Positions 3,639-64,000 of a DNA stretch of 64,000 nucleotides are shown in pieces. A model generated the notes under the pieces. That model searched no databases. It had not been told where the DNA came from and saw only the letters and a program-made list of their open reading frames with translations. The position numbers and the translations under genes are program-made. Where the stretch lies: positions 3,247,912-3,311,911 of the forward strand of contig CM026553.1 of NCBI GenBank assembly GCA_015143295.1, read 5' to 3'. The DNA is from Tetracentron sinense. Taxonomy: Eukaryota > Streptophyta > Magnoliopsida > Trochodendrales > Trochodendraceae. Numbering within the stretch: the stretch's first letter is position 1; the number at the start of each line of letters is the position of its first letter.

Positions 3639-5489
3639 CTATCCAGATCCCTATCTTCTTTTGGATGATCACCTGTAGGTTACTTCTCTATGTATTCTTC
3701 CTCAATCCAAGGTTTCGGTGCACATATGTCAAAGCCCGAACCTGTCGAAAATAACAGTTCGTCTGAGCATTGAAACACTCAACAAATATGAAATCCTAGA
3801 TGACAATATCATAAGCATTAATATCATACAATTATCATGGTTGAATAATATATTCATACCTACATTAATCAGAGCATACATAATCAGAGTGTGGAAACAT
3901 ACATTATTTTCAATTCTTACTTTGTGCTCACTTATGCTTACTTTTCTGACTTTCCTTGATTTTTCCCGCGAGTAACAATACTTCATACATTCACTTTTCC
4001 TACACTTGTGCAATAACTTAAAATAACTCACACCAGATATGGATAGAGATTATCTATACATTTTTTACCGAGTTACCGCTTACTTAGCACATACACTGGT
4101 ATGCTCAGGCTTACTTGATTCACTTACTTGGGCAAACATGTCTCTTGTTCTTAGACTGCTGGTACTTGGGCCGTGAAAAACTCAATCATGGAATCATACA
4201 TGTGCTATACTTACTTTTATCACACTTGTGTTCATACTTCTGATAATGAATTAATCATACTTGTGGTTACATAATTGTGGTGAGTCAAGTGAGTGAATAA
4301 GTGAAATAACCATCGGTTAAATGGTAACCTAGATTATTAGTCAAGAGCCAATGGAAGTCCATCATAACAGCCCATTCCATCATGATAAAAATCCTAGGCA
4401 ACTGAGATCATAATCTACAACCAACACTCTAATCCAAGGCATCTCTTAACCGAACATATATCACAACATGCACTTGGTACATCATACTTCAAGGTCACAA
4501 TATATCATTTTTATCAATGGTTGGTAATTTAAAACATGCATAATTATGGCTCTTCATACATCAATTCAATAGGTCATTCATCATACATTGGTCTTCAAGT
4601 GTTACATACATGAGAATAATAACCGTAATTCCTTAATTGGACAAAATCAGGAAATCATACTTCAAACATACGAACATTCAATAATCTCCGGCATACATCT
4701 CCTTCTCCACATTCAGACATCCATAATCCAGCAAATCAATCACTTTTCCCATGTTAATCACACACATAATCAATTCGAAATCATTTACATATGTAATCAT
4801 GAGAAAACTTGCATATGATTGATTCTTACAATGAACCACATTAATCATTGTTCTTACTTTAAAACAGTCTTACTTTTCTTTATTAATCATTAATGATCAA
4901 TGTTAAAATCAATATGGAAGACATATTTACCTTGCTTAATCGCTCCCCTACGATCTTTCGCTTTCGAATAAGCTAGATTTAGATCACCGGAGTCTTTTCT
5001 TTCTTCTCCCAGAACAGGTTGAGCAAAACCCTAGGTTTTTCTCTCCCTTATCTCTCTAAAACTCTTAGAATGTTTGGAACCTTAAAACCCACGAGTTAGG
5101 GCCTTTATATAGTGTTTAAGAGTCCCATTTAAATTAGAATTCTCGAAAATCTGGATTTAGAAGGAAAATTGGGCAAAACATAACCAGTTGGTCGACCGGT
5201 TGTGCAGGGCAATCAACCGGTCTTGCTAGGCGGTCAACCAGTTTATTGAAGCCCCTGTTTTTGCCTTTTTACATTTTTTTGAGACAGCGGTCGACCGGAT
5301 TGAGGGTGGGTCGACCGTTTTGCCTTGTTTTGGTTGGTTTTGTTGAATTTTCTTCCCTAAGCCCTTAAACGTTGGTCACATAGCATAAATACATACCATT
5401 AAACATAATTGCATAGTTTAAACACCAATTTCTAGATTTCCATTCAATTTGCACGAGTTTCAAGCCATGCCAAAATCTGGGTTTCTACA
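3639..5489 (-). mobile_element. LTR of a gypsy-like element, minus strand (LTR4)
   Basis: Read on the minus strand, the LTR starts at 5489 with TGTAGAAACCCAGATTTTGG, close to the starts of two other LTRs here (TGTAGAACCCCGG at 29687 and TGTAGCACCCC at 33403). A TATA box lies at 5103-5113 (minus), followed by a leader with CTAGGGTTTTGCTC and a polypurine/pyrimidine run. The lower boundary is not clear and 3639 is only an upper estimate of its extent. No internal coding region is attached, so it is a solo or truncated LTR. Confidence 0.6.
5103..5318 (-). promoter_or_regulatory. U3 palindromic modules plus TATA box of LTR4
   Basis: Five copies of a palindrome of type ACCGGTCGACCGGT lie at 5186-5318, in perfect or near-perfect form (GGTCGACCGG, ATCAACCGGTC, CGGTCAACCAG, CGGTCGACCGG, GGTCGACCG). 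Each is centred on TCGA or its decayed form TCAA. They sit about 75-205 bp upstream (minus strand) of the TATA box CTATATAAAGG. The same arrangement with other arms occurs in other LTRs of the window. Confidence 0.8.
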
Positions 5490-6531
5490 TTAACCATAAT
5501 AACGAAAATTACTCATTAGTAACTTTTCGATCTTTTCATGGACTTTCACCATAATAATGAATTTTTAACAAAATTACTCTTTTGCCATTTTTCTGTCAGT
5601 CTATGGACTTTCACTATAATAACGAAAATAACTGATTAGTAATAATGACAAATATTTTAAAAAATTACCATTTTACCATTTTTTAATTCTAAGAATTTAT
5701 GATAATCAACATATTATCACTAATTTATAATTCACAATCATTTCTATAACACATAGAATTTTACTTATGAAAAGCCTCATTTTTCAAAGGTTCATATCCT
5801 ATAAAAATTACAGCACTTCTAAATAAATTTGGATAAAATTCATTATTATTTTAAGTAAAAAATTAGAATAAAACTTATGTGAATTGCCTACATACGACTT
5901 TTCCATTTAGTATTAGAATTTTACCATAATTCCAAATAAAAACTTAAAATAAGGTTTATAGAAATCACTTACTAACTTAGCTATGACTTATCTGAAGTCT
6001 AGCTTTTCTCTTCTCCTTCCTTTTTCCTTCATTAGCTTTCTTCCCTTTCCTTCCTTTTCCTTCTTTCTTTTCTCTTTTTATCCTTCTCTTCTTCTCCTCT
6101 CTAGACTTTGCTCACAATGAGAATGATGCCAAGAGAAAGGGACGTTGGGTATTTATAGGCTAGGTGGTCTAGCCCTCCTTAACTATGATTATTAATTTCT
6201 AATACCAATAATGATAGGTTATGAAAACCCTTGGTTACCCTTGAGTTACTCACTAGGTTTAGTAAATGCTCATGCATTAACCTTGTAGAAGCTTTTCCTC
6301 TCCCTCATGAAATTCCATCCCTAGTTAGTTGGCATGTGGCATTCATGCCTATTCCACGATTTTGTTTTTCCTTTCAGTCACTCCATTAGATTGAGGAGAG
6401 TAGAATCAGATTCTCAAAATTTTGAAAATAGGACGGAACCATATTTTTCACCTCTATTAGATCTTAACATTTTTACAAATGTTTGAATCTGGTTTTCTAC
6501 TACAATTTTTCAAGATTAAATTTTTTCTACA
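5490..6531 (-). mobile_element. Probable minus-strand LTR fragment, AT-rich
   Basis: The minus strand starts at 6531 with TGTAGAAAAAATTTAATC, resembling LTR starts nearby. It has a TATA box (GCCTATAAATACCC, about 6147-6158) and a long CT/GA-rich leader (6000-6110). Toward 5490 there are direct repeats of a CATAATAACGAAAAT unit near 5495, 5555 and 5612. No coding sequence is visible, and no palindromic module cluster is seen upstream of this TATA box. Confidence 0.4.
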
Positions 6532-16127: not shown

Positions 16128-19100
16128 GTGTCTGTATTCTAATGCAAAAAGGGACGAGAATCATTACCTCATAATCCTAATTCTCAAAAACTCTCCTATT
16201 CTCCCTCTTCCCTACCATTTTCTCTTTCTTTCTTCTCTCTAGCTAAACACTAATCCTACAATCAACTCCCTCCCCACAATCAAATAAAAAAAATTAAAAA
16301 AGGACAGAAAGCTGAAGATTTTGTGCTTGGCAACAAATCTGTCTAGGAATTTTTGTCATAAGACAGTCATGAAGCCAACCCTCCTCAAAACTAACCATCA
16401 TTTTGGGTAAAGATCTGTAGGTTGTATAAAGATCCGGGAAACTAAAATAAATTGGTCTTTTGAAGAGTTAGGATCGAAATCTTGACTCGAGAAGTTGCAT
16501 GGAAACAGAAAATAGCTGTCTTTTAAAAATATAATAGGGCATAAAACCGATGGCATTTATTTTCATATTTGTTTACAGGTTTAAAGTTTGGACATGACAG
16601 AGATCTGATGATTGCAACAACTGTGGCTATAAGACAGTCATGAAATCCAATTCACCTCAAAACAAACCGTCATTTCTTGGTAAAGAGGTGCAGTTTCTCC
16701 AATTTGAAGATTTAAGATCTTCTAAATAGTCAGGGAGTTCGAAATTTCCCCTATATTTTCTGCGTTAAGTTAATTCTCCACATTTTTCTCAATGGATATG
16801 AATTAAATTAAATGATCATCAGTTATAAAATGTAATATGAATTTCCATGTTTTCTTCAATTCTTTAATATTTTCCCAGCTTCAGTCCTATGTTACCAGGA
16901 CCATTTCAAAAACCAGTATATTCACGCTGACATGACATGGCACGGTTATGGGATCCATGTCAGATATGCCCAGCCATACCCTGATGGTTTATATTAAAAG
17001 AATATTTAAAAAGACAGCATTTTAAAATTTGAGAGAAATTATGAATAATACTATGATATTGAGTACATAGATGTCCTAGCCCACTATGATTCGAGGGGTC
17101 GAACATGTCTGACACTTGTACACGTACCTGAGTACCATAGCTTTTGTCTTAGTTATATTGATGGACATCCATTTAAATTATGTTTTATGACATCAAATAA
17201 GAGCTACCTGAACCAGATTGACCCCGAAGGTCCAACGGTTTGACACAACTGACCAATCAACATGACTCGGGTTTCAAGACATTGATGACATAACGATTAA
17301 AAAAACATTGGTGGCATTCATACAAGGACCTGAAAACCACCATTCCATGTCTCCAAACTAATATTTCCATGGTAAAAATTTGATCCAGTCAGAGAACCAT
17401 ATATATTTGTTGTTGTGGACTTCTTTTTGGGTCCGTAGGGGAATTAGGCAACATGGAGTTTCATGGGAACCTACCATAAACTATAACAAAAAATATACTA
17501 GACATAAAAATCTATACAACCCATCACATCCTTGTCGGTAATTGATCTAGACTTTTTGAATTATTTTTCATAATTATTTCCAAGCCATAAATATAATGTG
17601 ATTATTGGATGGTTAGTCCCATCCTATTTGGTCATTTTTTGCCCTAGATCTCCATGGTGACTGCCTAAAATGATGTCTCAACCCCGAAATGTGCATATGC
17701 AATTATGAGATTTAAATATGAATACATAAGCATACACGTAGTCATAATATATATCCAGTGAGAGAGATAGTTATATATATAAATATATACATATAAAGAG
17801 AGAGAGAGAGAGAGAGAGAACAGCATACATACTTGTTCAACAAAGTGTGCCAGCCGGGTTTGTGCACTCAAGAACCGTTGGATGAAAGCATTGATTGACT
17901 TTGATTGGCCGGTTGTAGTCATCCCCGCAAAGAAATGGCTTCTCAAGTACGGTAACGCCCAAAGTGTCCGCAATGCAAACAAGTTGGCTATGTGCCTATT
18001 TGTGTGTAGCCCAAAGGAATTGACCATGTCCCTCCACCCAAGTTCAAAATCTTCTATCATCTCCAGATTATAGAGCCGATAGAACTCAGCCTTCCACTCA
18101 TTGTACCGTTCCCCCAGAACAGCATTAAACCAGGATGGGAACTTTGCAACGATTAGCCAAATGCAAAGTGCATGTTTAGTATTCGGCATTTCAGTGGCTA
18201 TCGCTTCTTTAAGACACATATTTTGGTCGGTCAGGATTGTTTGTGGGGCCTTCCCGTTCATGAACCCTAAGAATGCCTGTCATAAAATTATAATAAACCA
18301 CAGAACACCAACATTGTTAGAGGAGAGAGTAGTTGAACTATGTGAAAAAATATATAATAGACCAGAGATCCATCATCCTCAATGAAGCCCAAATCGCCCC
18401 AAATATCATAAACATGACATACAAAGCCCCCCAATCTGAAACACCCAAATCACTTAGCTGCCCTAAATTGGTGCATGGCCCCAAAAAAAAGTGACTAGTC
18501 AATTCTAACCATCTAATGCAAGAACTTTGGACTGGCAATATTCTTCCTAGCCATCCAATTTCGAAGCTAAGATCCCCTCTGGTCGGTATGAATTTTTAGT
18601 AATGACCCAAACAAGGGTGGCCATCCAATTGAGTTGTTCAGATTGATAAGTAGGTGGGCACATGTTCAGTATAAGGAGTAGGATGATTAAGGATGATGAA
18701 CCTCAGTTTGAGATATGTATTCTTCATTCCTTTACCTTCAATGCCCATGAAAAGGACCGCAAATTTTCCTCGCGTAGGAGCACGCAGCCGAAGAAGCAAG
18801 GCATGCCATAGTTATTCATTCCTACCCAGATACCAAGTGGCATGTCGAAGGCAGTCAAGCGATGTGTTGTATCGAACACTACTGCATCACCAAAGATATC
18901 ATATGACTGGACTGACGAGGCATAGGACCAGGCAATGTTCTCTAGTCTGTTGTTCACATCGATTGTGAACTCGTATCTGAAGTTGGGGTCTTTGTCCTTT
19001 ATGCTTTTGCACATTTTTAGGAGGTCAATGCTATCATCTTCCTGATCCACTTTTCTAAATGACTGGAGTAGGTTCCGCACGTCTTTCTCTGTGAACGGCA

Positions 19101-19713: not shown

Positions 19714-20053
19714 TGCTCTTCTTCTTAGTAACACACACGACCTTAAATGTAAGACCCTGTGTCCAATGTTTTAATAATTAGATCTTGTTAAATAACTCAA
19801 GCCTGACACAGAATCAAATACCAAGAATAAAGAAGATAAGGAAGAAGATTAAGTTCCTTCCAGTTCATAAATAACTAATAGGATATAAGGGCAGACGCTA
19901 GAATGAAAACCGATATATTTACTGGTCAAAGAATGGGCAGAACACTGTTGATTAGTCCATCATTTAAGTTACAATTTGTTTGCTTATTTATGAATTGATG
20001 CTTTTGTAGAACACAAAAATTTTAGACCACTGTAACAATTACTTTGACAACAA

Positions 20054-23250: not shown

Positions 23251-25789
23251 AGTAATGTCCCTGAGGACTCAAAAGCTTCTTACTAGGGAGAGACACATTT
23301 ACTTATACTCTTATAGCACTAATCAACCCTTTATCTAAGTGATCTTTTTTTATGTATTCACACTCAACATAGTTCCACCAAGCCTAGCTTTACCCACTCC
23401 TTTAGTATCTGTCAGTTGCTCTTGAGACTTTACATGAGGTGTGAAAAACATCTTTGATGTCACTTTCTTTCTAATAAAATGACAATCAACTTCTATAGCT
23501 TGGTTCTCTCGTGATAGATAGGGTTGGCAGCAATATGTATAGCAGCTTTATTGTCTCCATACAATTTCACAAGCAGCCTAACTTTGACACCCAACTCAAT
23601 GAAAAGGGTCTTTATCCATCGATGTTCACAAGCATCATGTGTTATTGACCTATACTTAGCTTCTTTGCTTGACCTTGCAAGTCGCAACAACATTTTAAAA
23701 TTCTACTTCTCCAATTAGTAAGGTTTCTTCCCACGAATCTACAGTATCTTGTGAGAGACCATTGTCCACTGAAGAGCTTGTCCAATCAACGTTGGTATAC
23801 ACCTCCATCAGAGTGCCCATGATTAGCATACATGATACCTTTCCCAGGAGTCCAGGACTTGATTTTAAGTATCTTAGAATCTTGCAGACACAAGTCAACT
23901 GAGAGGTATGTGGGTGCATGCATAAGCTGACTTACTACACTTACAACATAGGATATATCTAAAAATTTAATGATAAGTTAAATGAGCTTTCTAAGCAGCT
24001 GCTGACAAGACCCTATATCTTCAAGTGTTTCTCCTTCCGTAGCACACAAATGATGACTTTGTTCCCAACATCAAACATCCCTATTTGCGTAAGAAAGTCC
24101 AAAATATATTTCCTTTTTGAGATAACAATGCCTTTCTTTAACCTTATAACCTTAGTGCCGAGAAAGTACCTAAGAGGACCCAAGTCTTTTATGTTGAATA
24201 CACAACTTATAAAGTCTTACAACGCCTGGATCTCCAACACCTAAAAGGTGAACCCAAGTCTTTTATGTCAAATGCACAACTCATATAGTCTTACAACGCC
24301 TAGATCTCCTTAGGATCATCCCTTGACACTAAATTATCAGTAAGTTATGTATGACAACTGATGCTATGTTATCTGTTGAGTTCCTCTTATAATCGTTTTT
24401 GATCATGGCTTCTCTAAACCTTTTGAATCAAGCTCGTGGAGACTGCTTCAAGACATAAGTAGCTTTCTTCAACTTGCGTACTTTCCCACTCTCCCTCATA
24501 GGTAGTAAACCCGGAAGTAGATCTATATAGACTTCATTCTATGGAGGTTCGTGTAAGAAAGCATTTTTTAAATCGAGATGACATAAAGGCCATGACTGTG
24601 GGTAGCAAGAAAAAAAAGAAAACGAACTGAATTTAACAAAACCATTGTTGCAAAGATTACCTGATAATCGGTACCATGTTTGGGTATACACCTTGTAACG
24701 ATTCTTGCTTTAAAGCTCTCAACAGTCTCATTATCTTTGTACTTCATAGAATATAACCACTTGCACTAACCGCTTTCTTCCTCTGGACTTGGATAATAAA
24801 GATTATTCCATATATTCTTTTCTAGAGCTTTTATTAAATCTAATATAGCATCCTTCGACCTTCGTTTTTTTTTTTTTAATCGCTAAATCTGAACATTTGT
24901 ATTATATAAGTAAAGAAAAATAGGTACATAGGCGGCTCAAAAGGAGGTGAACCAGGGATTGAAGAAGGGGGGTAAACTCCTGAGTACTGAACTAGAATAA
25001 TGCTTGAAAAGAGGTAAATAAACAAAAAGGAAATAAACGGATGTGCTCTATATGATCAAAGTATCAAACATCTGCTTGAATGACATAAATGCTCAGAGCA
25101 TACTACTCGCAGCCTTGAAGATCCAATCCAGATCGGTAGGCACTCCCTCGGCAGAGAGCCAAAAGAGAACTAGCTGGCGAAACCTTGCTCAGATATGAAC
25201 CTTGAACGAGACAATCGCACTGAAGACTAGAGGGTTTCGCTCCCTCCATAGGGACCAAGATAACACCCCCTCTATATAAGCCCTATAGGCATGGTTTAAA
25301 AAAATGTGGAAACCCATACGTATCGGTTTCGATAGGACCCAGTACCTGACCTATACATGGTTTGTTAAGAAATAGTAAGACTCGCTCAAAACCTTTAAGT
25401 ATTGCCTGAGTTTTACGATACGTAACGGTTTTGGCGTAGGACTCATCGACGTTTTGAGATAAAAGGGATTACCGTAAAGCCCTAAAAACTCCTCTTTCGT
25501 TCCCCTCTTGCTCTCTACTCATTCTAAGGAGCCCTAAAACCTAAAATATTTTTAATTTTTGGTGATTAAAAACTTGATTTGGGGTTTGAATCATCGATTT
25601 TTTTAACGGCTTATTCTCACACGGGTATGCCCAAGCCCAACAATATGAAAATCTCTACCATTAGCCTTAAATTCAGTCAAATAGAGATGATGATGACAAT
25701 AGAGTCAACCCGTAATTCTATGTGGCTTTAGCAATATGTTTATACTTTCGACTCATCTAGACTGTTGCCCAGTAAATGGACCCTAGAGG

Positions 25790-27289
25790 GGGAGGGGATG
25801 ATTAGGGTCAATGGCACAATAAAATTTGCCTTGGTCTATTTTGTGGAATTAAAGAAGTTAAGGCAATGCAATTAACAAAGATAGATAAGAATGACAGACA
25901 GAGTTAGAGAAATACAAACACCGAGAGTTTGTTCACGAGGTTCGACAACTTCTCTATGTCCCCGCCTTTCAGCTTCCCGCTTCAAGGATTCACACGATTT
26001 TACTCGTATAAGCTTCTTCACCAGGTGAAGCTCAAACCTCTTACAATCCCTTCACAGGCTGGGACACCACCTTTAATGCAAGAGAACACCCTCTCTTAAC
26101 TTCTCAAAGCTTTCTGGCTTCACGGACAAGAATACACAGATTCTTGATTTCTTTTAATGTACTGAAGATGATTGGATTTGAATCCAGTTACAAGACTCCT
26201 TAATGAGCTAGATAGGATTGGAATAAAGCCTCTACAAATCTCTCAAAAGATTGAGAGTTAAAAGCTCAAATAGGAGAATTTGAGATTTCTAAAATTTTCA
26301 ACATGTGATTGATGAGAATTGAATGATATGATCAATGAGTATTCAATAGGGGATCAGTAGTTGTTTATTGTTCATAAATGAACTCAATTTATAAAGCTTG
26401 GAAGATTTTAGTCGTTGGAGTAGCATTTAATGCGCTTTTACCCGTTAAAAAACTAGCCGTTACGAGTTTCCTGCAGTCAGACGTCGACGTTTAGGTCTGA
26501 GAGTTGTTCAGACGTCGACATCTGCAACACCGAAAATCTTCCTGAGCTACTGTAATCCCCAAACATTGACGTTTGAAGGTTCTTCCTTGTCAGTCATCGA
26601 CGTCTACAAAAACAGAAAATTTTCTGAGCTTCTGTTATCCCCAAACGTCGACGTTTGAAGGTTCTTCCTTCTCAAACGTCGACGTCTGCATTGATTTTTT
26701 TACAGACTACCTTATTTTAAAAGACCTTTAAGATGAGAATTAATTCATAAGCCTTTGGGCTTTCCATTATCATGTTTTGGTCATGTTTTAAGATGTCCTA
26801 AGGCCTTGGAATATTTTCCAAATAGGTCAAGGCTTCCTAAGGTCAATCTAGGTTCTTGAACTTTCCAAACAATTAAGGACTTTTTACATAAGTCCTAGAC
26901 TCTTTAAATGAAATAAATAAACCTTCTTGAGTCTTCAGTTGTCTTTTCTTGATCTTGAATGATTTCTTCTTTAGCTTCATGATCAGACTTGGACTTTGGG
27001 TGAGATCTTGAATCTTCATTTGAATCAACACCTTGGAATTGATTGATTTTTCTTTTTGAGTTCTTATTTGACTTGAGTGGCCATATGGCTCTTGTAGCCT
27101 TTTGTCATGATTTCTCTTTCACAAGGAGTCTTGTTTTTACTTGGTGACATATCTTGGTCACGTTGAATTTTTCTTGAAAAGTGGACTAATGTTCCTTAAA
27201 TCTGAAATTGACATATACTTTGTAGAACAATTAATACCAAAATGTTCATTGCATTATTGTGTCATAATCAAAATTATTAGGGGTACACA
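25790..27289 (-). mobile_element. Solo LTR, probably copia type (LTR-F)
   Basis: The minus strand begins TGTGTACCCCTAATAATTTTG at 27289 and ends near 25790; the exact lower end is uncertain. It contains GTCGAACCTCGTGAACAAAC, common in copia LTRs near the 3' end. It has a TATA box (GCTTTATAAATT, 26390-26401) with a palindrome cluster upstream. No internal region or second LTR is present. Confidence 0.65.
26390..26692 (-). promoter_or_regulatory. U3 palindromic modules plus TATA box of LTR-F
   Basis: Six copies of a palindrome of type AGACGTCGACGTCT or AAACGTCGACGTTT lie at 26479-26692 (for example ACGTCGACGT at 26481, AAACGTCGACGTTTG near 26644). Each is centred on TCGA or a decayed form. They lie about 80-290 bp upstream of the TATA box on the minus strand. 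Confidence 0.85.
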
Positions 27290-29686: not shown

Positions 29687-30687
29687 TGTAGAACCCCGGA
29701 ACTGAGTTCACTGTACGATGAACAGTGTCAGTAAATAATGTCCTTATATGGTGTGTGTAAAGGCTTAAGGCCTTCCATTGTGTTCTTGGTATGAAGGTGA
29801 GTCAAGTGAAGGGTTTTAGATGAGTGTGTTAAGTCTCAAAAATAAAGTATAAGTATACTCTAAGTGGGTAAAAACAATAGTATAAAATACCCTAAGTGTT
29901 TAGTGGGTTGTAAGTGAATAGTGCTAATGCGCGAAACATAAAGAGGTCGAGGCCTCTCATGGATATTGGTGTGAATTCAATGATCACCTAAATGGGTTAC
30001 AAACCTATGAGGTGTGAGTTAAGTGTTGGATCCAAGGGGAAAAGAGTGTGAAAGTACTCGAAATATTTCGAGTGTTAAAAGGGTATGACTTCACATACCC
30101 TCAACTTTATGAAACTCTAGTTTAGTCACCGCTGCTCGGAATCGAATGATTCTTGAATTTTTTGAAATGTATTGAAACCCTCTTTGAGGTTCATGTTTAT
30201 CATTTTTCCATATTTTGAGTCAGGGTTGAGTAAAAAGTTGTGTAAGCACTCCAATTTTGCACCCCTTTAGTCTCTTTTCGTACCCTTAAAAACTCTTTTA
30301 AAAACTCTCTTTTAAAACCTTCTTCTCACATGCTTCGATTTTCAAAAACGGCCTAGAGGTGAAAAATAACCAAAATGCCCCTAGGGTGAAAAATGATTAA
30401 AAAAAATACCCTTGAAAAAGTGCTAAAAAGTTGTCATTTAGTCCAAAATGATTTTACAATTTTTTTGATGAATTTTGGCTATTTTTTGGATTAAATTGGT
30501 CTTAAAACGGTAGAAAATGATCAAAATGCCCCTGAAAAGTATTTAAAAAATTCATGTTTTATCTAAAATATTTTTCTAGATTTTATCAGTTTAATTTTGA
30601 CTATTTTTGCGCTCAAAACAGAAAATCGGTTTTTCGGCGAATCAAAAAGCACCACGTGGCACCCAAAAATGATTTTTGAAACCCCTA

Positions 30688-33402: not shown

Positions 33403-35604
33403 TGTAGCACCCCAGACTTTTCCGTACTTAATGAATAACACTTTCATAGCCAATTGACCTTTCACATAGTCTAATTAATAAATAAAGGAAAAATTGAAAA
33501 TTCTAAAATACCAGAAATGTTCATTTTCGAAAGACGAATCCAACGTAAGTTGAATCGTCAAAATCCGACGAACGAGTCAAAAGATATGGCCAAAACAGTG
33601 GGAACTTGCAAAGCACCGATCGCTCGGTCCAATGTAGCGATCGATCGGTCCACAACCAATCGATCGGTAGCTATCAACTAGTTAACTTTTTTGTATGGGA
33701 AAAAATTTCAGAGAGCATGTTTTTGACCGATCGCTTAGTCAAGAACACCGGTCACTCAGTAGACGACCGATCTCTCGGTATTAACCCCCGATCGATCGGT
33801 ATATCGCGTTTTGCAGAAATTTCATTAAGGGCTTTTTCATCTTTTGGGTGTTAAACCCTTGCCTATAAGGGCATGTTCGAGCATTTGGATACCCACACAT
33901 CATCCTTAGAGCATTTTGAGAGAAAGGGGAAGAGAAACTAGGGTTCTAAAGACCTCTTCCTATTTGAGAGAAAGATCAAGGGTTGAGCATCCAAGGATCA
34001 TCCCAAAAGCTTGAAACTCCTCAAGATCAAGCCTTAAGCTTGTATGGAGCTCTTTTCTAAGCTAGGGCAGTGTCTCCCACAACATTTTCAAGGGTTTTCC
34101 TCTTTTGTCTCCATGGTTAGTATACCCTACTAACTCCCTTAGCAATAACCTAGGATTCCTTAAGTGATTGCGCATTGAATCTTCCCCCATTTCTCTTTTG
34201 TAAGGAAATATGTTATATTCCCTAAATCTAAACAAGGAAAATGTGAATGGTGGAATATATGAATGGAGGATGGGTTGAGGTGATTGGATGCCGTGTTGTA
34301 CGATGTGTGATGTGTGTGATGGAAATGGTGGAAGGGCATTCTACAAATAATGAACTTACTTTGATGATTGGATGAAAAATATGCACTAAAAAGAGTAAAT
34401 GAAACTACTAAGGAATGTTGCACACTGGATGTTTGATAAAATGCCTAAACTAGAAATAAATGAATTTAAGAAAGAAAATTGAAGTAGGCCTTATGCAATT
34501 TTCTTATGAATGAGGAATTGACCAAATGCCATGTAGATTCTCTAAATTCTCACATGTTTATACTATGAATTGAAATGCTATACTCTATCCTTCATAACAT
34601 ATAGTCATCATGATTACTACAAGTGCTACACACACCCACACATGCACGCATGAACCGGGTTTTCCAAGAGTATTTGTACATGATAAATTAAACCAGAAAA
34701 CTAGCATATGTCAAGGAGGTTGGTAGCCCAAGTGAAGGGTACTAGCCTTTGGCTCACAAGAAAATGAAACAATAACATGTCAAGGAGGTTGGTAGCCCAA
34801 GTGAAGGGTACTAGCCTCTGGCTCACAAGTGAAGGAAATATCAAGGAGGTTGGTAGCCCAGGGATGTGCGGGTGCTAGCCTCTGGCTCACAAGTATACAA
34901 GTTAAGACATGAAATCTCAAACAAGACAGACACGCATGCATGATTTTCACAAGCAAGACCGAAACATGAAAAAGGTTTCTGAACATGAGTTTTACCAGGG
35001 TTTTCGCATTCATGCACGCATGTCAAGATATTTATATTGCTTCATGTTTAATACTATTTATCTTGTGTTGCTAGCATTGCTTTAAATCGATATTTTGTAT
35101 TGTGTTCACTGGGGTTGTGCTTTTGTTATTGCTATGGTTGGCTAATAGCTTGTACTCACTGAGTATTCCATGCTTAGCCGTACTTTAATGTCTGCAAGTA
35201 CCTTGGATGTCCTCGATCCTGAGCCTTGGGTCGAGGAAGAGTATGTAGAGGAGAGGGAGCCACCTATCCCGTTGCAGTCTCAGGATGATAGGGATTTGGA
35301 CGTGTGGCCATACCTCGACTACTGTTGAGAGGAGAGTGTTAGAGAGTTCCTTTTTGTATTTTGATAGGTGGGCATGTCCACCTTTATTTTGATTATGTTT
35401 TGTACATAAACTTGGAATACTAAAATGGTTTATGAGGAAAGAAAAAGTTAGTTCCCGTTTCCGCATTCATGATATAGTTCCACACTCCGATTATTATTGT
35501 ATTAAATCATGTTTAGCCTTGTTCATTACAGGATGGTTTGGCAGGTACGTACAGTCACACCTAAAGTATCCCTTAACTCATAGGGGGTATTTTGGGGCGC
35601 GATA
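33403..35604 (+). mobile_element. Solo LTR of a gypsy-like element (LTR1), 2.2 kb
   Basis: Flanked by a perfect 5-bp duplication TAACT (33398-33402 and 35605-35609). Starts TGTAGCACCCCAGAC and ends TTTTGGGGCGCGATA. Contains seven palindromes and a TATA box (33615-33870), an R/U5-like region with CTAGGGTTC, and three copies of a roughly 70-bp unit at 34709-34890 (CAAGGAGGTTGGTAGCCC). No internal region, so a solo LTR formed by recombination. Confidence 0.9.
33615..33870 (+). promoter_or_regulatory. U3 palindromic modules plus TATA box of LTR1
   Basis: Seven copies related to the perfect palindrome ACCGATCGATCGGT lie at 33615, 33637, 33658, 33725, 33747, 33765 and 33788. All are centred on TCGA or a one-base variant. 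A TATAAGG box at 33864 follows about 60 bp after the last copy. Confidence 0.88.
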
Positions 35605-44650: not shown

Positions 44651-44841
44651 CTACAAACGATCCTAGAAGACCCACGGACGATCGTAGGGATGCTACGAAC
44701 GATCGTAGATGAGCTATGATCGATCATAAAATGCCAGAAATAGGAAAACTCTCTGGACAAGTTACGATCGATCGTAGGAAAACTATGAACGATCGTAGGT
44801 CGTGAATCTGATTTTCTTAAGTGCGTCTTGGCCTATAAATA
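44651..44841 (+). promoter_or_regulatory. U3 palindromic modules plus TATA box of LTR2
   Basis: Six copies related to the perfect palindrome CTACGATCGATCGTAG lie at about 44651, 44672, 44693, 44713, 44762 and 44782. Arms such as CTACGAACGATCGTAG are visible. TATAAATA at 44834 follows about 35 bp after the last copy. Confidence 0.88.
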
Positions 44842-53463: not shown

Positions 53464-54250
53464 TTAATTGAACATTCGGAACCCAAATCATGGGAACTCG
53501 CAGAGTAGTATTAATATATGGTAAATTATTCTCAGGAAGAATGCTTATGGATGTGTTCTTACTTTCAGTATTGGAAAATTTTTGTATACAGAAGTTATTA
53601 GTAGTAGTGTTGGTAACGTTTTTTAATTTTTGTATGAGAAATTTTTTGTATAGAAAAGGTCATTTTGAATGTGCATATATTGAAACTTAGAACTCCCGTT
53701 CAAGAATCATTGTCTAATAAGTGCATCTCTTATCATCATTATGGACAGATTCGTTGTAGATTATGATGTTTAGTTCCTACGTGGACTACATTGCATCTAA
53801 CAACTGATTCATCATTTATGTGAAGATGAGTATTTGTATGCAAATGATTCTTGAATTGTTCGTTTGGACAGTTTGGGAATACATAATCCCGAAGCATGTG
53901 TCAGTCGCCCGTGCACACCCAATTTTGGGAATATTTTTGTCAATTAGTCATCACTATTGTTCTCTGGGTAGATATTTGGATAAGGAATATATCTGCCCCT
54001 TGTTTAAATTGTGTACTTGGAGAGTCATGGGGAGATGTTGCCGAAATTTCCTTAAAATTGAACAAAGCACGTGAGTTACTGGTTATTGAGGATTATGAAT
54101 TCCTGAATGGGATAGGAACACCTCACCCAATATGTATTCAATAATCATGATGTGTGCATTACCCTAATCATGCCGGTGTCATTTCTGTATCACATTGAGT
54201 TTATGATCCACATATTGTTAGTAGACACATCTAGCTAGTACCATCTACTA

Positions 54251-56550
54251 ATGGCAAGTATATATTGTCTTCTGTTGTTAGTGATTACAAAAGCTGATAA
54301 AGTCACCATTAATAAAAGATGGGTTTTTGCAAATAGATGGAGTGATATATATAAAGCGGGTGTCAACAATTTCTTGGATTTTGCATTTAGTAAGTCAACA
54401 CAACCTGACAGTACTATCAAGTGTCCATGTAAAAAATGTAGTAATCGATATTATTGGATACGTCACAATGAGTACGAACATTTGATTTGCGATGGATTCG
54501 ATAAGAATTATGTCATGACTATGTGGATTTTCCACGGGGAAAGACCGCATCCTAGATCTTCAACTGTTCAGGTGGTGACAAAGGAGAATAACCCTGTAAT
54601 TGATGATATGCACGAGATGTTGCACGCGGCATTCGGGCCCAATCGTGCAAACGAAGTGATAGTGGATGAGGGGCTAAGTAAAACAAGAGAGAGTCCCAAC
54701 GTAGAAGCAGCAAAATTCTATAATCTACTGGAAGATGCCAAGCAAGATTTGTATCCCGAATGTAAAAAGTTCAGTAAACTTTCTTTTATTGTTCGGTTAT
54801 ATCACATTAAGTGTCTCAATGGATAAAGCAACAAATCATTCACGATATTACTTGAGTTATTGAAAGAGGCACTTCCTAAGGGTGAGACATTGTCTGCATC
54901 CTTCTACCGAACTAAAAAGATAATCGGTGAATTAGGTCTTTGTTATAATAAGATTGATGCATGTCCAAACGATTGCATGTTATATTGGAAGGAGCATGTC
55001 AATGATAGTGCATGTTCCGTCTGTGATATTTCATGGTGGAAGACTGCAAACTCCCATATATCGCCATCATCTAGGAAGGAAGGCAGAATCCCAGTAAAGG
55101 TTTTACGTCATTTTCCTTTAAAGCCTAGACTTTAAAGACTTTTCATGTCAGACAAGATACAGCTGGTTCCATGAGATTGCATGCAGAGGGTCGCACCCAA
55201 GATGGGGCTCTAAGGCATCCAACTAACTCTGAAGCCTGACAACATCTTGACAAAAAATACCATGAATTTGCTGCAGAACCTTGTAATGTCAGACTTGGGT
55301 TAACAAACGATGGTTTTAATCTATTCGGTACACTTAGCATTGCACACAACACTTGGCCTATTGTTTTGACTCCATATAATTTGCCGCCTTGGATATGTAT
55401 GAAGCAACCTTTTTTTATGATGTCATTACTTATTCTCGGTCCTCATGCTACGAGAATGACATTGATGTCTACTTACAACCACTGGTAGATGAGTTATTAG
55501 ATTTGTGGACTGATGGCCTTCACATGTACGATGCGTCAAGTGGTCAAAAATTTCAGATGAGAGCAACATTATTGTGGACAATCAATGACTTCCCTGCATA
55601 TGTGAACTTGTCCAGATGAAGCACTAAGGGCCGGTACGCTTGTCCTCATTGCAATCGAGACATATGTTTCCAGTTCTTAAAACATGGTCGTAAGTTTTGT
55701 TTTATGGGTCATCGACGATTCTTGGGAGCTAGCCATAGATTCCGCAAGAACAATGCGTCATTTAATGGAAAGTTTGAAACAAGACCTGCTCCTATTTTAG
55801 ACACCGGGACCGAATTATTGGGGCAAATGCGTGGTCTCAATGTCCAATTTGGGAAGCATAACTTAAACACCTCGAGAGGAAAAAGAGTGTGAGACGATAA
55901 TGTTGAGTATATTGGATAGAAGAAGGTAAGTATATTTTTCAATTTACCTTAGTGGGAGCATCTACTAATATGGCACAATTTGGATGTCATGCATATTGAA
56001 AAAAATATACGTGACAGTATCACAGGGACATTATTGAATATTGGTGGAAAAACAAAAGACACTTGGAAAACACGTCCTGACCTTAAGGAAATGGGTATTA
56101 GAACTGTGCTTCATCCACATGCAGTAGGACAAAAAAAATATTTGCCTATTGCATACTTTTCCATGTCGGCTAATGAGAGAAGTATTTTCTGTAACGTATT
56201 TGTAAAGGTGAAAACTTCAGATGGATATGCGGCCAACATTTCAAGATGTGTAAACCTTAAAAGCGCAAAATAACAGGGTTGAAATCCATGACTGTCATAT
56301 TTTAATGCAACAGCTACTGCCATTGGCAGTGTGGAATCCCTGCCAAGGAATGTAAGTGCACCATTGATTGAGATGAGCAGATATTTTAGAGGATTATGCT
56401 CTAAGATTGGCACCATCGAAGAAGGCTCGATGTGCAATTACACTTTGCAACCTCGAGAGGATTTTCCCACCTGCATTCTTTGACATCATGATACATCTAG
56501 CCAACCATTTGGCAGGTGAGGCTAGGGTTGCAGGTCCAGTACAATACCGA
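54251..56550 (+). pseudogene. Decayed CACTA transposase (TNP2 type)
   Basis: Pieces in order: an N-terminal Transpos_assoc-like domain (54300-54560: F-x-FA, KCPCKKCSNR, then H..C and a WIFHGE ending); TNP2 core (54800-55137: ALPKGETLSASFY, ELGLCYNKIDACPNDCMLYW, C-x2-C, VLRHFPLKPRL); 55389-55620 (DIDVYLQPLVDELLDLWTDG); 55704-55890 (MGHRRFLGASHRFR); 55975-56280 (LDVMHIEKNI, GTLLNIGGKTKDTW). The pieces fall in two frames with several internal stops. No product is expected. Confidence 0.88.
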
Positions 56551-57304: not shown

Positions 57305-57580
57305 TATTGGTCGACCAGTACTCATCTTTGGTCGACCAAAGGCTTATTGGTCGATCAACATTCACCTTTGGTCGACCAAGGTGCAATATTTTTTGTTAGG
57401 GATATTTTTACAGTAAGGGCTTTTATGTTTGGTCAACCAACTATACCTTTGGTCGACCAAAAGGCTATTGGTCGACCAATACTCTTCTTTTGTTGACCTA
57501 TACACATATTTAAAGACTCATACTCGTATTTAAAGACTCCTCATTTCATTCTAACACTTCTTGTGACCCTATATAAGTTG
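57305..57580 (+). promoter_or_regulatory. U3 palindromic modules plus TATA box of LTR-G
   Basis: Seven copies of TTTGGTCGACCAAA (for example TTTGGTCGACCAAAGG at 57327 and TTTGGTCGACCAAAAGG near 57449), five with the intact TCGA centre. They lie at 57305-57480, and a TATA box follows at about 57571. Confidence 0.88.
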
Positions 57581-58533
57581 GGTTTGATTCTCATTCGACC
57601 CAAGAGAATTGTGAGAGTTTCTAAAGGAAAATTAGGGTTTCCCAAATCCATTCTCCTCCCCTCTTCCACCCTAGAGTATGCAAGACATTGTTTAATAATT
57701 CTTGTTTATTTGTTCCATTGTTAGGATTCAAACTAGGGTTTGTTATAGAGCAACCATCAACCCGTTCTTGTTAAGAACAATATGGTCAGAGTAATTTGAA
57801 GCCTTTGCAAAGGATATTGATCCGAGGAGGATCGTGGATATTTGGTCGGTGGAATCCAAAGTCGTCATTGATAGAGATCGATCGGAAGATCATGGTTGAG
57901 GAGATCTAGGAGCGAAACAGGCTACTGTGGTAGATTGCTGGTCTTGAGAGATCGTGATTCTTTCTAAGGCGTGGAGGACTGAGTACTGAGAATCATAGTG
58001 TCGAGTCAGGTTGAGTACCGGTCAAGTCTTGTAAGTATAAGAACCCAATTTTTACACCTCTGCTTTAACCACAGTTAAACTTTAAACCATGGTTATCCCC
58101 ACCTAAACCCTAAACCTAATTCTAGGTAAAACCCTAAGCTCTAGCAACCCTAGGTGAACCCTAAATTAAGCCCTAGCAACCCTAGGTAAACCCTAAACCT
58201 AACCCACGTAAGACCCTAAGCCCTAGCAACCCTAGGTGAACCCTAAATGAAGCCCTAACAACCCTAGGTGAACCCTAAATCAAACTCTAGCAGCCCTAGG
58301 TGAACCCTAAATCAAACCTAGCAGCCCTAGGTGAACCCTAAGTCAAACCCTAGGCTTAACCCTAGGTAAACCATGGTTAAACCCTAGGTAAACCCTAGGG
58401 TCCACCTAAAACCATCTTTGGCCCAAAAACCCCCCCAAAACCAGCCTAGAATAGTTCTATGGGCCCAAACAGGGGCCCACATACCCTAAGGACCATTGGG
58501 GTGGGGCCCATAAGACATAAAATTCAAAAATCT

Positions 58534-58835
58534 TGAATGACAGTAATCAAATTGCCGCTATTATCAAAAAATAAAAATGCTACAGTGTCTTTCGGTTTAA
58601 GTGTGGGGGTTTAGCCATTTCTGGCAAAAACTCTAAATGGCGGTAATTGTATTATTGCAATTCCCATATTGCTCTAAGTTGGGAATGACGGTAATGCTAT
58701 TACCGCAATTTAAGATCTTCTGCAAATTCGCGTACATCACCCCTCCTGGCCTCTTCTAGCCTCCTCCAGTTGGTTCCCCATGCTTCTGGTAATGCCCAGA
58801 TTGCCCCCAGGGTCGTCCCCCACTCCTATTTAAAC
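58534..58835 (+). promoter_or_regulatory. Palindromic modules plus TATA-like box of LTR-C
   Basis: Three modules of type AATGACGGTAATNNNATTACCGCAATT lie at about 58534-58562, 58635-58663 and 58684-58710, the last a clear dyad GCGGTAAT/ATTACCGC. They precede CTATTTAAAC (about 58826). Extra halves of the module (TACCGTCATTCTTAA) occur downstream near 59371 and 59767. Confidence 0.7.
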
Positions 58836-59879
58836 CCTCTCTATCTTCACTTAAAAAACACTCAATTTCCCCCATAAAAAAACCCTGCTCCATTTCAGTC
58901 AGCCCTACTCTAACCCTCTGAGAGTCTTGCCCAAGTCTTAGGTAGACCCTTGAGGATCCCCTATACCTCTCCTGACTCCCCCAAGCTCCACCAGCCTTCA
59001 TGCCACCACTGCTCAGCTGCCACCATGCCTGTAGCCACTGTAGAGAGGTAACATACCTACCCTCTTGCACTTCCTTTACTCAATCATTGTAAGGGACCCC
59101 TAGTCTTGCTCCAGGGGTCCCATATTTTGTTTCTTTCATGCTTTTTAGCATTTAACAACCAAGGACAGGATCCCCCATCTTCCTCATAGGTGTGGGGGAA
59201 CCCCTTGAGATTTCATACACGGATACAAGACCCCAGAACAACACAAACCTCCCCGAAGCTTCTAGGGGTCCCTCAAGTCATGAAGGATTCATACACAGAA
59301 TGCTTAGGTGTAGCCCTCGTAAGGAGAAATCCGATTTATGGGAAAGGCTTATGAATGGAAATAGAATAACTACCGTCATTCTTAATTTTGTAGCCTCTTT
59401 AACCATGGTTAGCATGGCCCTAGTCCAATCCAGGGCCATAATTAGGACCCCCAGACCTTCCTTTCCCTCCCCTGGTTATTCCAGGCCTTAACCAGCAGCT
59501 TAACTATGGTTAGTTTAGCTTCAAACCAACACTAGAATATTGGTGGTAGAACATTTACCACCATTTTAGTTTACCAAATGCAGGGCCTTTAGGCCATTGT
59601 GGGGCTCACTCTTGACCTCCCCCTGGGCCCACCAAAGGCTCAGGGTCTTCCCTGGACTTCAAACTTCACTCCTGTGGGTTCAGAACCCCATGAGGAGATC
59701 CCTAATGAAAGTTACAAACCCACAAACCAGGGTCAAAAGTGTTACTGTAATAGTGGTAATCCCATTACCGTCATTCTTAACTTTCTGATTTTTTGGGCTT
59801 TGCACAGGACCCAGACCTGATAGAAGGCAATTTTAGGCCCTACTATACCTTCTGGGCCCAAATCCTGACCAGACCTCTG

Positions 59880-60480
59880 CCTTAACCATGGTTAACCCAG
59901 CCTTTAGTTAATTTTTAACCATGATTAAGCAACCCTTGACCACAAAAAATCTAAAAAATGATCAAAATTTCAGAAATATTCTGAGATGTCCAAAAATGTC
60001 TTGCTTTGATCATTTTACCATGTTTAGCAGCCCTAACCATGATTACTTATTTTTTTAACCATGGTTAAGCATCCCCTTAACGCTTGAAAATCTGAAAAAA
60101 TCCCAAAAAACATTCAAAAAAATAAAAAAAGACCAAAAAAATAGTTTCTGACCCTTTTTACAATGGTTAGCACCCCTAACCATGGTTAACACCCATTTAA
60201 CCCCGGTTGTAACCCTAACCTTGATTAAATTCATCTTTGGCCTACCAAGCCTATCTTGGAGCCTACTGGGCTCACCCTTGGCTTATCGGGCCCAATCCTA
60301 ACTTACTGAGTTTGAACATACTTCTTTAACTGTGGTTAACAACCCTAATCATGGTTAACTTGACCAAACCCTGGTTAGCAACCCTAACCTTGGTCAAACT
60401 TTACTTTGGCCTACCGGGCCTGAACCCTAGTCTACCAGGCTACCTCTTGGCTTACTGGGCCCCTACCATGTGCTTGACCA
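59880..60480 (+). repeat. Interspersed AACCATGGTTAA palindromes in LTR-C
   Basis: Many copies of TTAACCATGGTTAA-type words with CCATGG or decayed CCATGATT centres (for example 59886, 59928, 60056, 60178, 60350), irregularly spaced. Similar words form the ends of the MITEs at 61.2-61.7 kb. Confidence 0.7.
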
Positions 60481-61184
60481 ACCTTGGTCAATAATACCTT
60501 AACCTCCGGGTTAGATCCATTAGCCACCCTTGGTGCACACACAAACCCCCTAGCCATAGCACGGGCTCATGTGCCAGACTATGCTCAATCTGATCTCACC
60601 TTAATGTGAGTACGTAGGTAACCTAACCCAGGTTCGACCTTAGTTAGCTTTTCTTTTTTAGATTAGTCTTACTTAAATACTCAGGCATTTTAACAAACTT
60701 TGAAATTAATTGGCTTAAACCTAAGGAGTAGGGAACCATTGAAAAATGAAAGCCTTGGGGTGCCTAACACCTTGCCCCGACTTAACCGAACCTCCTACCC
60801 TAATCTCATTCACAGACCAAGACCTTATCCAAATCCCGGGAACTTATCTCTTCTGAATGAATAGGTGACGACTCTAAACCCGTGAGATTAACCAAGGTTC
60901 CGAAACTCGTGCTCACAGTAGGTATTTATTTATTTGTCTTAGTGATATCTCTTTACTGGACTAGGTCCCGTCGTTTTTCCCAGAAGAGTTTCCACGTAAA
61001 AATTCCTTGTGTTATGGTTTGCTTGTCTTATCTATTTCTGTACTTGCTTATCATCTTCCTTTAATTAATAATTTGATTGCTTAAATTTTAAAAATGGTAG
61101 ATAGACTTTTAGGGAGACCTAGCCACCCCTTTGGGTTTGTGAGTTCTCAACTCAAATATAGATTTGGGATTCACCGGATTTTTT

Positions 61185-61737: not shown

Positions 61738-64000
61738 TGTCGTGACCCAAAATACACCCTACAAGTTAGGGATACTTTGACTCGTGATGTGCTATATCCG
61801 ATACCAAACCATCCTGTAACAATACCCAAGGCATAACATAACGAAAACATAGAATAGTGCGGAAGCGTAAACTTAAAATTTTCATTTATACATATGATTG
61901 TATTTCAAGTTTGTATAATAACAAAACAAGAGTGGACATGCCCACTAGATCAAAATACAACTGTAATCTCTCTCTCACCACTCTCAATAATATCCAGCAT
62001 AAGGCCACCTATCAAGGTTCCTATCCTCTTCTGGATGAGCCTTTGTCGGTTCCTCCTCACTGTAGTCCTTCTCGACCCATGGACTGAGATTACAAATGTC
62101 GAACTGACCTGTCAACACAAAATGTATGGCTGAGCATGGAATACTCAGCGTGCACAAACCACTAGCTAGCAATGCTATAATAACAATAATATTACATACA
62201 AGTATTTAAAAGAATACCATTCATAAATTCATGCTTAAAACCCATCATGGAAAACCATTTGTCAAATCTTATCTTTCGTGGAAAACAAAACCCTTTGTAT
62301 AAGTCTTATGAGTTCTTGTGAGCCTTGTGAGTTCTTATGAGCTTATGAGTTCTTATGAGCCTTATGATCCTTGGAGTCTTGTGAACTGATCTTAGACATG
62401 ATCTGTAGAGCTTGTGAGCACTTATAAGCCTTGTAAGCCTTGTAATCGATCTTAGACATGCATTTCTTGTGCGTTCTTAGAAGCCTTGCAAGACTTATGA
62501 TCCTTGGAGCTTATGCAAGATCTTAGACATAATCCTTGTGAGCATGACATAACCGATCTTAGAAATATCAGCCCAAAGTTTGACCTTGTCAATGCTTATG
62601 AACATATGTTTGTTCTTGTGAATTGTCATTTGAAAAATCTTTTTTATGATTCTTGAAACATCGTGCTTATGAGAAAATGTCAATTATACAAGACATAGAG
62701 TGCATCGTATACTTATGAGCATCATAATGTATATGGAAAACTTTAAACATCCACTATATGTTTAGATTGAACTTATGAGCATCATAATAGACTTAGAAAA
62801 ATCACTATATATTTCAAGCATAGTTATGGGGTACTATTCATAGTAATGGTACAACAACAATCATGGATACTAAGCCTATTTCATCACGTCTTACTTAGAA
62901 TCATAGTTTATTGAAGGAAAATCACAACCATGTATAAGCATAAACATATTTACCCTTCTATTGAAAAACCCAACTTAAAACCCCTTATTTACAACATTGA
63001 ATCATAATAAGATTAGAAAATAGGTATATTTACGTATGAAATTACAACAAACTAATTAGTAGAAGATAATTACCTTTAGAATTGAAGGAAAAGGCTTGAG
63101 AAGGGTTGAGAATGTGAGATCCAAACTTGAAGAAGGAAACCCAAGCTCTACCTTGATCCCCCAAGAGAAACTCTAGCTTCTCCCCTTTATCCCTCTCTAA
63201 ACTCTCTCAATTTCTCTCAAATTTATGCCTTGAGGGTTTATGAAACCCTAACCCACAAAAGTGGGTATATATAGGCAAACGGGGTGGTCATAGACCAACA
63301 TACCCTTAATAAAATGGTTTAAAAGGCAAAACAGGGCAAAATTTCTGTGCCCGATCGACCGGCTTGGAGGGGCGGTCGACCGACCTTGGAAAAATCCTTT
63401 CTATTTAGCCATTTTGGGCTTTTTCTTGACAGTCGGTCGATCGGCCTTGAGGGGCGGTCGACCGGCCCTGCACATAACCTCACTATAAGACCCTTTTGGG
63501 CCTTTTCGAGACAGTCGGTCGACCGACCTTGAGGGGCGGTCAACCGGCCTTTCCAGAACTTGGCCACTTCTCTTGTTTTTTTTCTCATTTTTCACACTTA
63601 GAGTGATTCCTCAATCCGACTAGTGCCTCCAGGTGATGCCACTTCAATCAATCTGACCAGCACCTCTTGGTGATGCCACTCTAGCTAGCGCCTCTTGGTG
63701 ATGTCACTTCTTTCAATCTGGCTAGCACCTCTGGGTGATGTCATCTCAATCATTTTGGCTAGTGCTTTCGGGACATGCCACATCTCCTCTGGCTAGTGCC
63801 TCAGGGATATTCACATCTCCTTCATGCCACACACTCTTCAGCTAGTGCCCTTGTGGACATGTCATTCCCCAGCTAGTGCCTCCAGGATGGCCACCTCATC
63901 TCATCTTCGGCTAGAGCCTCCGGGACATGTTGCATCATGCCGTTCAGCCAGTACCTCCGCGAACAACTTTACCTCGATTTCTGTATGAACATAGAGACCA
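61738..64000 (-). mobile_element. Gypsy-like LTR (LTR3), minus strand, running off the window
   Basis: On the minus strand it ends at 61738 with ...TTTTGGGTCACGACA. Inner blocks correspond in order to LTR1 (a CTCCTCACTGTAGTCC region, GTGGACATGCCCAC near 61933, and a TGAGTATTCCATGCTCAGCC-like stretch near 62140). It has degenerate CTTGTGAGTTCTTATGAGC repeats at 62280-62530, a TATA box near 63263-63275, palindromes at 63350-63557, and roughly 50-bp repeats (CTAGTGCCTCCGGGACATG type) at 63600-63960. Its 5' end lies beyond the window. Confidence 0.75.
63263..63557 (-). promoter_or_regulatory. U3 palindromic modules plus TATA box of LTR3
   Basis: Six copies of a GGTCGACC-core palindrome (CGATCGACCGG 63351, GCGGTCGACCGACC 63372, GTCGGTCGATCGGCC 63433, GCGGTCGACCGGCC 63456, GTCGGTCGACCGACC 63513, GCGGTCAACCGGCC 63536). 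They come in pairs about 23 bp apart, repeated every 80 bp. They lie about 80-290 bp upstream of the TATA box (CCTATATATACCC on the minus strand). Confidence 0.88.

What the first reader, a model, noticed from the sequence alone, without database searches (positions are those of the whole stretch)
5103..63557. TCGA-centred palindrome clusters upstream of the TATA box in six different LTRs
Six LTRs (LTR4 at 5186-5318, LTR-F at 26479-26692, LTR1 at 33615-33800, LTR2 at 44651-44798, LTR-G at 57305-57480, LTR3 at 63351-63557) each carry 5-7 copies of a family-specific 12-16 bp palindrome. Idealised forms are ACCGGTCGACCGGT, AGACGTCGACGTCT, ACCGATCGATCGGT, CTACGATCGATCGTAG, TTTGGTCGACCAAA and GGTCGACC with variable arms. 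Every one is centred on TCGA. All lie in U3, roughly 35-290 bp before a TATA box, on the strand that is transcribed. The arms differ, and both copia-like and gypsy-like LTRs are included, so shared ancestry of the DNA is an unlikely explanation. Convergent recruitment of a dimeric host factor, a dyad enhancer, or CG-methylation-linked control is inferred. I know of no named system with this architecture.
Basis: partly seen in the sequence, partly recalled or inferred. Interest (0 to 1): 0.9.

Follow-up and report, generated by a model that had tools for sequence, protein, structure and literature searches.

The report
Helix-phased palindrome arrays in plant LTRs
Several families of jumping genes in this plant genome carry, just upstream of their promoters, rows of short mirror-symmetric DNA boxes spaced by whole turns of the double helix, which looks like a docking pattern for a paired host protein and extends a design known from one jumping-gene group to another.

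Summary
The clusters are real: 17 TCGA-centred palindromes (at least 6 of 7 pairs) lie in the six 300-bp stretches upstream of TATA, 0 downstream. Details are overstated: of 37 boxes, 24 have an exact TCGA centre and 30 a central CG; LTR4 is weak. The architecture is not unnamed: it matches the palindromic 'RM boxes' of Sirevirus LTRs (PMC2829016), two of which (Vitis, Tnd-1) are TCGA-centred.

Added here: (1) the same design sits in a Ty3/gypsy family (LTR1) as well as in Ty1/copia (LTR-G). (2) Genome-wide, GGTCGACC pairs 12-42 bp apart number 7,889 (reversed control 7), CGATCGATCG pairs 17,157 (control 1), but the same-letter palindrome GGACGTCC only 29. (3) Centre spacing is near whole helical turns: 50 of 50 and 46 of 50 listed places fall at 19-23 or 39-42 bp; GCTCGAGC pairs are mixed. 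(4) Boxes in an array are alike, linkers are not.

Best reading: dyad sites for a dimeric host factor, aligned on one helix face, forming the LTR enhancer. Binding and activity are untested. Within lineages descent is likely; across superfamilies convergence or module exchange is open.

The parts
5186..5319 (-). LTR4 box array: centres 5193, 5235, 5292, 5312; TATA near 5110 on the - strand. Weakest of the six
   Evidence: family hits
25763..27289 (-). LTR-F, probable limits (TG..CA); C-rich signal about 20 bp from its 3' end as described for Sireviruses; far limit by eye only
   Evidence: sequence; similarity edge at 25763; signal described
26478..26687 (-). LTR-F box array: centres 26485, 26516, 26567, 26598, 26649, 26680; spacing 31/51; TATAAA near 26395 on the - strand
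   Evidence: 43 matches listed
33403..35602 (+). LTR1 (at least to 35602): Ty3/gypsy, probably chromovirus
   Evidence: sharp start in copies; integrase tail before the LTR in L011 and L018, gag after it in L012 and L013
33614..33800 (+). LTR1 box array: centres 33621, 33642, 33661, 33732, 33753, 33772, 33793; spacing 21,19,71,21,19,21; TATAAG near 33862
29687..30240 (+). 5' part of LTR2, cut off from the rest by a nested element
   Evidence: matches of 29687-30000 to LTR2-family loci
44651..44797 (+). LTR2 box array: centres 44658, 44679, 44700, 44721, 44769, 44790; spacing 21,21,21,48,21; TATAAA near 44833
57305..57501 (+). LTR-G box array: centres 57312, 57333, 57352, 57373, 57434, 57454, 57473, 57494; spacing 21,19,21,61,20,19,21; TATATAA near 57569
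   Evidence: copia by copies L002 and L004
63349..63548 (-). LTR3 box array: centres 63356, 63377, 63438, 63459, 63520, 63541; spacing 21,61,21,61,21; TATATATA near 63274 on the - strand
   Evidence: family hits

Best explanation
The boxes are arrays of dyad-symmetric cis-regulatory sites in the U3 part of plant LTRs, the same kind of architecture as the Sirevirus RM boxes. Most likely a host DNA-binding protein binds each box as a symmetric dimer centred on the CG of TCGA, and boxes two, three, five, six or seven helical turns apart put the dimers on one face of the DNA, so that they act together on the TATA box 43-285 bp away. Shown: position, symmetry, near-fixed spacing, unlike linkers, presence in copia and gypsy LTRs, genome-wide excess. 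Inferred: binding by a dimer, cooperation, activation. Unknown: the protein, and whether different arms mean different paralogues.
For: 17 sites upstream and 0 downstream of TATA. Box-to-box identity within nine arrays 0.71-0.89, flanking 6-bp linkers 0.19-0.49. 26 distinct intervals from nine arrays fit a 10.15-10.2 bp period; 0 of 20,000 random sets as good at 10.2 and 0 of 3,000 with the period free between 8 and 13. First 50 listed genome-wide places of GGTCGACC pairs (34 loci more than 5 kb apart) all at 19-23 or 39-40 bp where 12-42 was allowed; CGATCGATCG 46 of 50. 7,889 and 17,157 pairs against controls of 7 and 1, and 29 for GGACGTCC with the same letters. Ty3/gypsy and Ty1/copia bear the same design. 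Arms differ symmetrically between families.
Against: No binding, expression or chromatin data. Listed places are 50 of thousands, all on contig C1, and multiply by transposition, so they are not independent. GCTCGAGC pairs (1,935, control 722) have 13 of 50 listed spacings at 36-37 bp, out of phase. The 11 long gaps alone fit 10.2 bp weakly (113 of 20,000; 95 of 3,000 with the period free) and not 10.5 bp. Many LTR1 and LTR2 boxes have an asymmetric centre (TCGC, ACGA). In LTR1 copies boxes are no better conserved than linkers (0.862 against 0.856; without CpG columns 0.833 against 0.862), unlike LTR2, LTR3, LTR-F, LTR4. Symmetric double changes within families are only moderately in excess (29 of 2,323 cells; about 11 expected; 12, 7 and 10 in slid controls).
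Confidence: 0.55

Rival explanations
1. Structure or small RNA: read-through transcripts of the arrays fold into hairpins and feed small RNAs, as proposed for palindromes of maize Sirevirus LTRs; symmetry is kept or tolerated for that reason.
For: Arrays as RNA fold more stably than Markov shuffles in six of six LTRs (z -2.0 to -4.7). Passages in PMC10760457 and PMC5311732 tie Sirevirus LTR palindromes to small RNAs.
Against: Any set of alike palindromes folds well. It predicts neither a TCGA centre nor whole-turn spacing, and GGACGTCC would serve as well yet has 29 pairs.
Confidence: 0.15
2. CG methylation or nucleosome placing: CGs at the dyad, repeated at about 10.2 bp, set rotational placing of nucleosomes or are a methylation-sensitive switch.
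For: CpG observed/expected is 0.63-1.68 in arrays against 0.50 in the window. Period nearer 10.2 than 10.5 bp. Centre losses in LTR3 and LTR-F are mostly TTGA/TCAA among those listed.
Against: Does not need long symmetric arms. GGACGTCC pairs with a central CG are rare. No methylation data.
Confidence: 0.15
3. Descent and tandem duplication: arrays are old minisatellite-like repeats inherited within a few LTR lineages or passed between elements, with spacing frozen by history.
For: LTR3 and LTR-F carry tandem duplications offset by 82 bp at 80-82% identity. LTR1 and LTR2 share 70 bp at 83%, and LTR3 probably shares a segment with LTR1-type LTRs.
Against: Linkers are much less alike than boxes. 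Arms differ on both sides between families. LTR-F uses 31/51 bp, still near whole turns. No alignable sequence between LTR-G and LTR1 regions at the level tested.
Confidence: 0.12
4. Chance plus selective reading of one window.
Against: Shuffles give no clusters in ten times 331 kb; genome-wide pair counts exceed controls about a thousandfold or more for two cores.
Confidence: 0.03

Closest known systems
Sirevirus RM boxes (Bousios et al. 2010, PMC2829016; sections 9 and 19 and passages seen)
   Same: Many copies of a family-specific palindrome in the LTR, a short distance before the TATA box, CpG-rich, arms varying between elements; Vitis CGGTCGACCG and Tnd-1 ACAATCGATTGT are TCGA-centred; LTR3 boxes contain CGGTCGACCG.
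   Different: The paper gives a CGG-CCG core as the common feature, often with intervening bases, and calls the boxes Sirevirus-specific within the Ty1/copia elements compared. Here the centre TCGA is the common feature, arms without CGG-CCG occur (LTR-F, LTR-G), a Ty3/gypsy family has them, and spacing is near whole helical turns, which a word search of that paper's main text did not show.
[quoted passage not shown] 2016, not held; known through passages of PMC10760457 and PMC5311732)
   Same: Clustered palindromes in the regulatory part of LTRs.
   Different: The maize motif CACCGGACNNNGTCCGGTG has a spacer and no TCGA centre; the emphasis there is on small RNAs.
Tnt1 box I and similar LTR activators (mentioned in section 19 of PMC2829016; otherwise recalled)
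   Same: Symmetric repeated activator motifs in plant copia LTRs.
   Different: Not compared here by sequence.

Membership tests
Sirevirus RM-box architecture | Family-specific palindrome in several copies in the LTR | tested here: met
   37 boxes in six arrays, 4-8 each; RM elements in the paper have at least 8 copies in total
Sirevirus RM-box architecture | Cluster shortly before a TATA box | tested here: met
   43-285 bp; none downstream
Sirevirus RM-box architecture | CGG-CCG core | tested here: not met
   Present in LTR3 and in part in LTR4; absent in LTR-F, LTR-G and LTR2 boxes; Tnd-1 is an exception in the paper too
Sirevirus RM-box architecture | CpG-rich cluster | tested here: met
   Observed/expected 0.63-1.68 against 0.50 for the window; no formal island call was made
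Sirevirus (element lineage) | Ty1/copia coding region | tested here: inconclusive
   LTR-G: copia gag after the LTR in L004; LTR1: Ty3/gypsy instead; LTR-F, LTR2, LTR3, LTR4 not tested by coding sequence of their own
Sirevirus (element lineage) | C-rich signal about 21 bp from the LTR 3' end, CA/ATTGG junction, repeated purine tracts | tested here: inconclusive
   By eye: C-rich signal in LTR-F, ATTGG junction in L004 and repeated purine tracts in L002 for LTR-G
Ty3/gypsy chromovirus (LTR1) | Integrase with chromodomain before the 3' LTR | tested here: met
   L011: Integrase_H2C2 2.6e-16, SH3_Tf2-1 1.5e-17, Chromo 0.004 (below its curated cut-off); L018: SH3_Tf2-1 2.3e-19
Dimer-bound enhancer array | A protein binds and transcription rises | not testable with these tools
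   No binding or expression data for this genome

The most novel reading that the evidence does not exclude
One host dimeric DNA-binding system (one protein or a set of paralogues) that reads TCGA dyads at whole-turn spacing has been recruited independently by Ty1/copia Sirevirus-like and Ty3/gypsy chromovirus-like elements; each family keeps the centre and the helical register and changes its arms symmetrically, so that the arms are a family-specific code in a contest between elements and host or among elements.
Probability: 0.3. Interest if true: 0.82.

Novelty: new variant of a known kind. Interest (0 to 1): 0.6.

Why it matters
If right, it gives a simple rule (TCGA dyad, whole-turn spacing) for the promoter-proximal part of thousands of LTRs in two superfamilies, makes the unknown binder of the RM boxes searchable, and lets one test how LTR promoters change specificity while keeping geometry.

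Tried and rejected
I first took the 86% repeat 30241-32409 / 42168-44407 for part of LTR1 and LTR2; it is rather the LTR pair of a nested element that splits LTR2. I considered LTR-F on the + strand because of a purine tract at about 25785-25800; TATAAA and the C-rich end fit the - strand better. A strict R-TCGA-Y rule (all eight arms here and two published) is weakened by GCTCGAGC pairs and by shared descent. Palindromes with 1-7 bp spacers were scanned (a filter there also removed period-4 boxes): most clusters were the same boxes or the linkers between LTR2 boxes; others not explained that way were window 31556 and 35750, L047 and L063. A first comparison of box and linker conservation used some misplaced box centres for LTR1 and LTR2; one search replaces it, and LTR1 then shows no difference. 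LTR-G copies L002-L004 do not align with the window array, so LTR-G has no covariation count. The LTR4 set included one site that is not an array box. A count of ACGTCGACGT pairs did not complete. Of 30 LTR1 loci, L020, L027 and L036 have copia reading frames upstream; I read these, by eye, as elements into which LTR1 copies inserted. Literature: ten searches were answered (with no paper; one search failed on a short term); no TCGA arrays in gypsy LTRs and no helical spacing were seen in listings or in the passages opened. Only open-licence PMC papers are covered; the 2016 maize paper was not held.
Full report
Observation. 21 of 184 TCGA words in the window centre a palindrome with at least 6 of 7 pairs; 17 of them lie in the reported arrays, 4 elsewhere. 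Sixty shuffles give 1.8 on average, 7 at most, and never more than two within 300 bp. Upstream of the six TATA boxes, 300 bp each, there are 17 such sites, downstream none. Counting boxes by likeness to each family's ideal gives 37: LTR4 4, LTR-F 6, LTR1 7, LTR2 6, LTR-G 8, LTR3 6; the centre is TCGA in 24 and CG in 30. The clusters are real, 'every one TCGA' is too strong, and LTR4 is weak.

The elements. The window's own genome is held (1.16 Gb). LTR1 starts sharply at 33403 in copies. In L011 and L018 an integrase tail (Integrase_H2C2 in L011; SH3_Tf2-1 in both; a weak Chromo match in L011) ends little more than 100 bp before the LTR, and in L012 and L013 a Ty3-type gag follows it: Ty3/gypsy, probably chromovirus. 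LTR2 shares 70 bp at 83% with LTR1. A segment 62048-62317 on the LTR3 side matches LTR1-type LTRs at about 70%, which suggests, but does not prove, that LTR3 is related. LTR-G copies show ATTGGTATTAGAGC and copia gag (Retrotran_gag_2, 9.8e-8) in L004 and repeated purine tracts before the LTR in L002: Ty1/copia, Sirevirus-like. LTR-F has a C-rich stretch about 20 bp from its end, as described for Sireviruses, but no coding evidence. LTR4 is unplaced. The LTRs of a nested element (30241-32409, 42168-44407) and of a copia element (about 954-3629) hold none of the 21 sites, so the feature is not general to LTRs.

How general. In 331,404 bases (window and loci L002-L068) a scan for three or more alike ungapped palindromes of any centre within 350 bp gave 27 clusters, 24 TCGA-centred and 3 CATG/TGCA simple-repeat-like; ten shuffles of the same sequence gave none. 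Of the 24, 4 are in the window and 13 in copies of the query LTRs. Seven are elsewhere; L002 was fetched by its own box, L007:7278 is an LTR1 copy, L066 is LTR-F-like, L011 and L057 carry LTR1-type boxes and an identical reading frame, and two have new arms (L004:600-692 ACTCGTCGACGAGT; L007:1992-2196 TGCGATCGATCGCA, with a TATA word 60 bp away). So this sample is partly circular. The genome-wide counts are less so: pairs with 4-34 bp between them number 7,889 for GGTCGACC (reversed control 7), 17,157 for CGATCGATCG (control 1), 1,935 for GCTCGAGC (control 722) and 29 for GGACGTCC (control 4). GGACGTCC has the same letters and a central CG, so neither composition nor CpG explains the excess.

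Spacing. In nine arrays (six in the window, L002, L004, L007) neighbouring centres lie mostly 19-22 bp apart within a run (31 in LTR-F) and 48-51, 57, 61-62 or 71 bp between runs, with one of 42 in LTR4. The 26 distinct intervals fit a period of 10.15-10.2 bp (0 of 20,000 random sets as good at 10.2; 1 at 10.5; 0 of 3,000 with the period free). The 11 long gaps alone are weaker (113 of 20,000 at 10.2; 9,821 at 10.5; 95 of 3,000 with the period free). The first 50 listed places of GGTCGACC pairs, 34 loci on C1, are all at 19-23 or 39-40 bp where 12-42 was allowed. CGATCGATCG: 46 of 50 at 19-23 or 39-42; the rest 26, 26, 35, 36. GCTCGAGC: 16 of 50 at 20-23, 14 at 31-32, 13 at 36-37, 7 others. 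Transposition multiplies arrays, so places are not independent events.

Signs of selection. Boxes in one array are 71-89% alike, neighbouring linkers 19-49%, so plain tandem duplication is not enough. Among genomic copies, boxes are better conserved than linkers in LTR2 (0.848/0.635), LTR3 (0.840/0.813), LTR-F (0.860/0.816) and LTR4 (0.767/0.676), but not in LTR1 (0.862/0.856; reversed without CpG columns). Symmetric double changes within families: 29 of 2,323 cells, about 11 expected, 12, 7 and 10 in slid controls, mostly from LTR-F and LTR3. Between families the arms differ symmetrically.

Mechanism. Dyad symmetry, register, free linkers and a place 43-285 bp before TATA are what an array of homodimer sites on one helix face would show; this is inference. 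Hairpin or small-RNA roles (z -2.0 to -4.7) and nucleosome or methylation roles are rivals and could act together with it.

Known. Bousios et al. 2010 described palindromic RM boxes before TATA in Sirevirus LTRs, with Vitis CGGTCGACCG and Tnd-1 ACAATCGATTGT in Table 3, called them Sirevirus-specific among the copia elements compared, and found no common binding site of a single factor. I saw no report of gypsy arrays or helical spacing. I file this as a new variant of a known kind.

Noticed in passing
window 30241-32409 and 42168-44407: LTR pair (86%) of a nested element with a tRNA-Arg-like primer site at 32411 (2 mismatches), possibly Ogre/Tat-like, holding 11/44-bp telomere-like repeats; it lies inside LTR2, and LTR1 lies inside it.
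   Followed up: partly
window 58037-60917: Stretch that interrupts LTR-G relative to copies L003 and L004, with AACCCTA-like 11-bp repeats and several TTAACCATGGTTAA palindromes (59400-60188).
   Followed up: no
L007:1932-2196: A further LTR-like array, TGCGATCGATCGCA, eight boxes at 20-22 and 49-50 bp, with a TATA word 60 bp from the first centre.
   Followed up: partly
L004:600-692: Another array with new arms, ACTCGTCGACGAGT, four boxes at 21, 50, 21 bp.
   Followed up: partly
LTR-G and other GGTCGACC boxes: Loss of the central CG gives GGTTGACC or GGTCAACC, which hold a W-box-like TTGACC (recalled motif): decay could create WRKY sites.
   Followed up: no
window 18727-19770, 47306-49018, 54239-54823: Transposase-like frames: FAR1/MULE, hAT-like with BED finger, Transpos_assoc.
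   Followed up: no
genome G000: GCTCGAGC pairs are frequent too (1,935) with spacings 21, 31-32 and 36-37 bp; their source is unknown.
   Followed up: no
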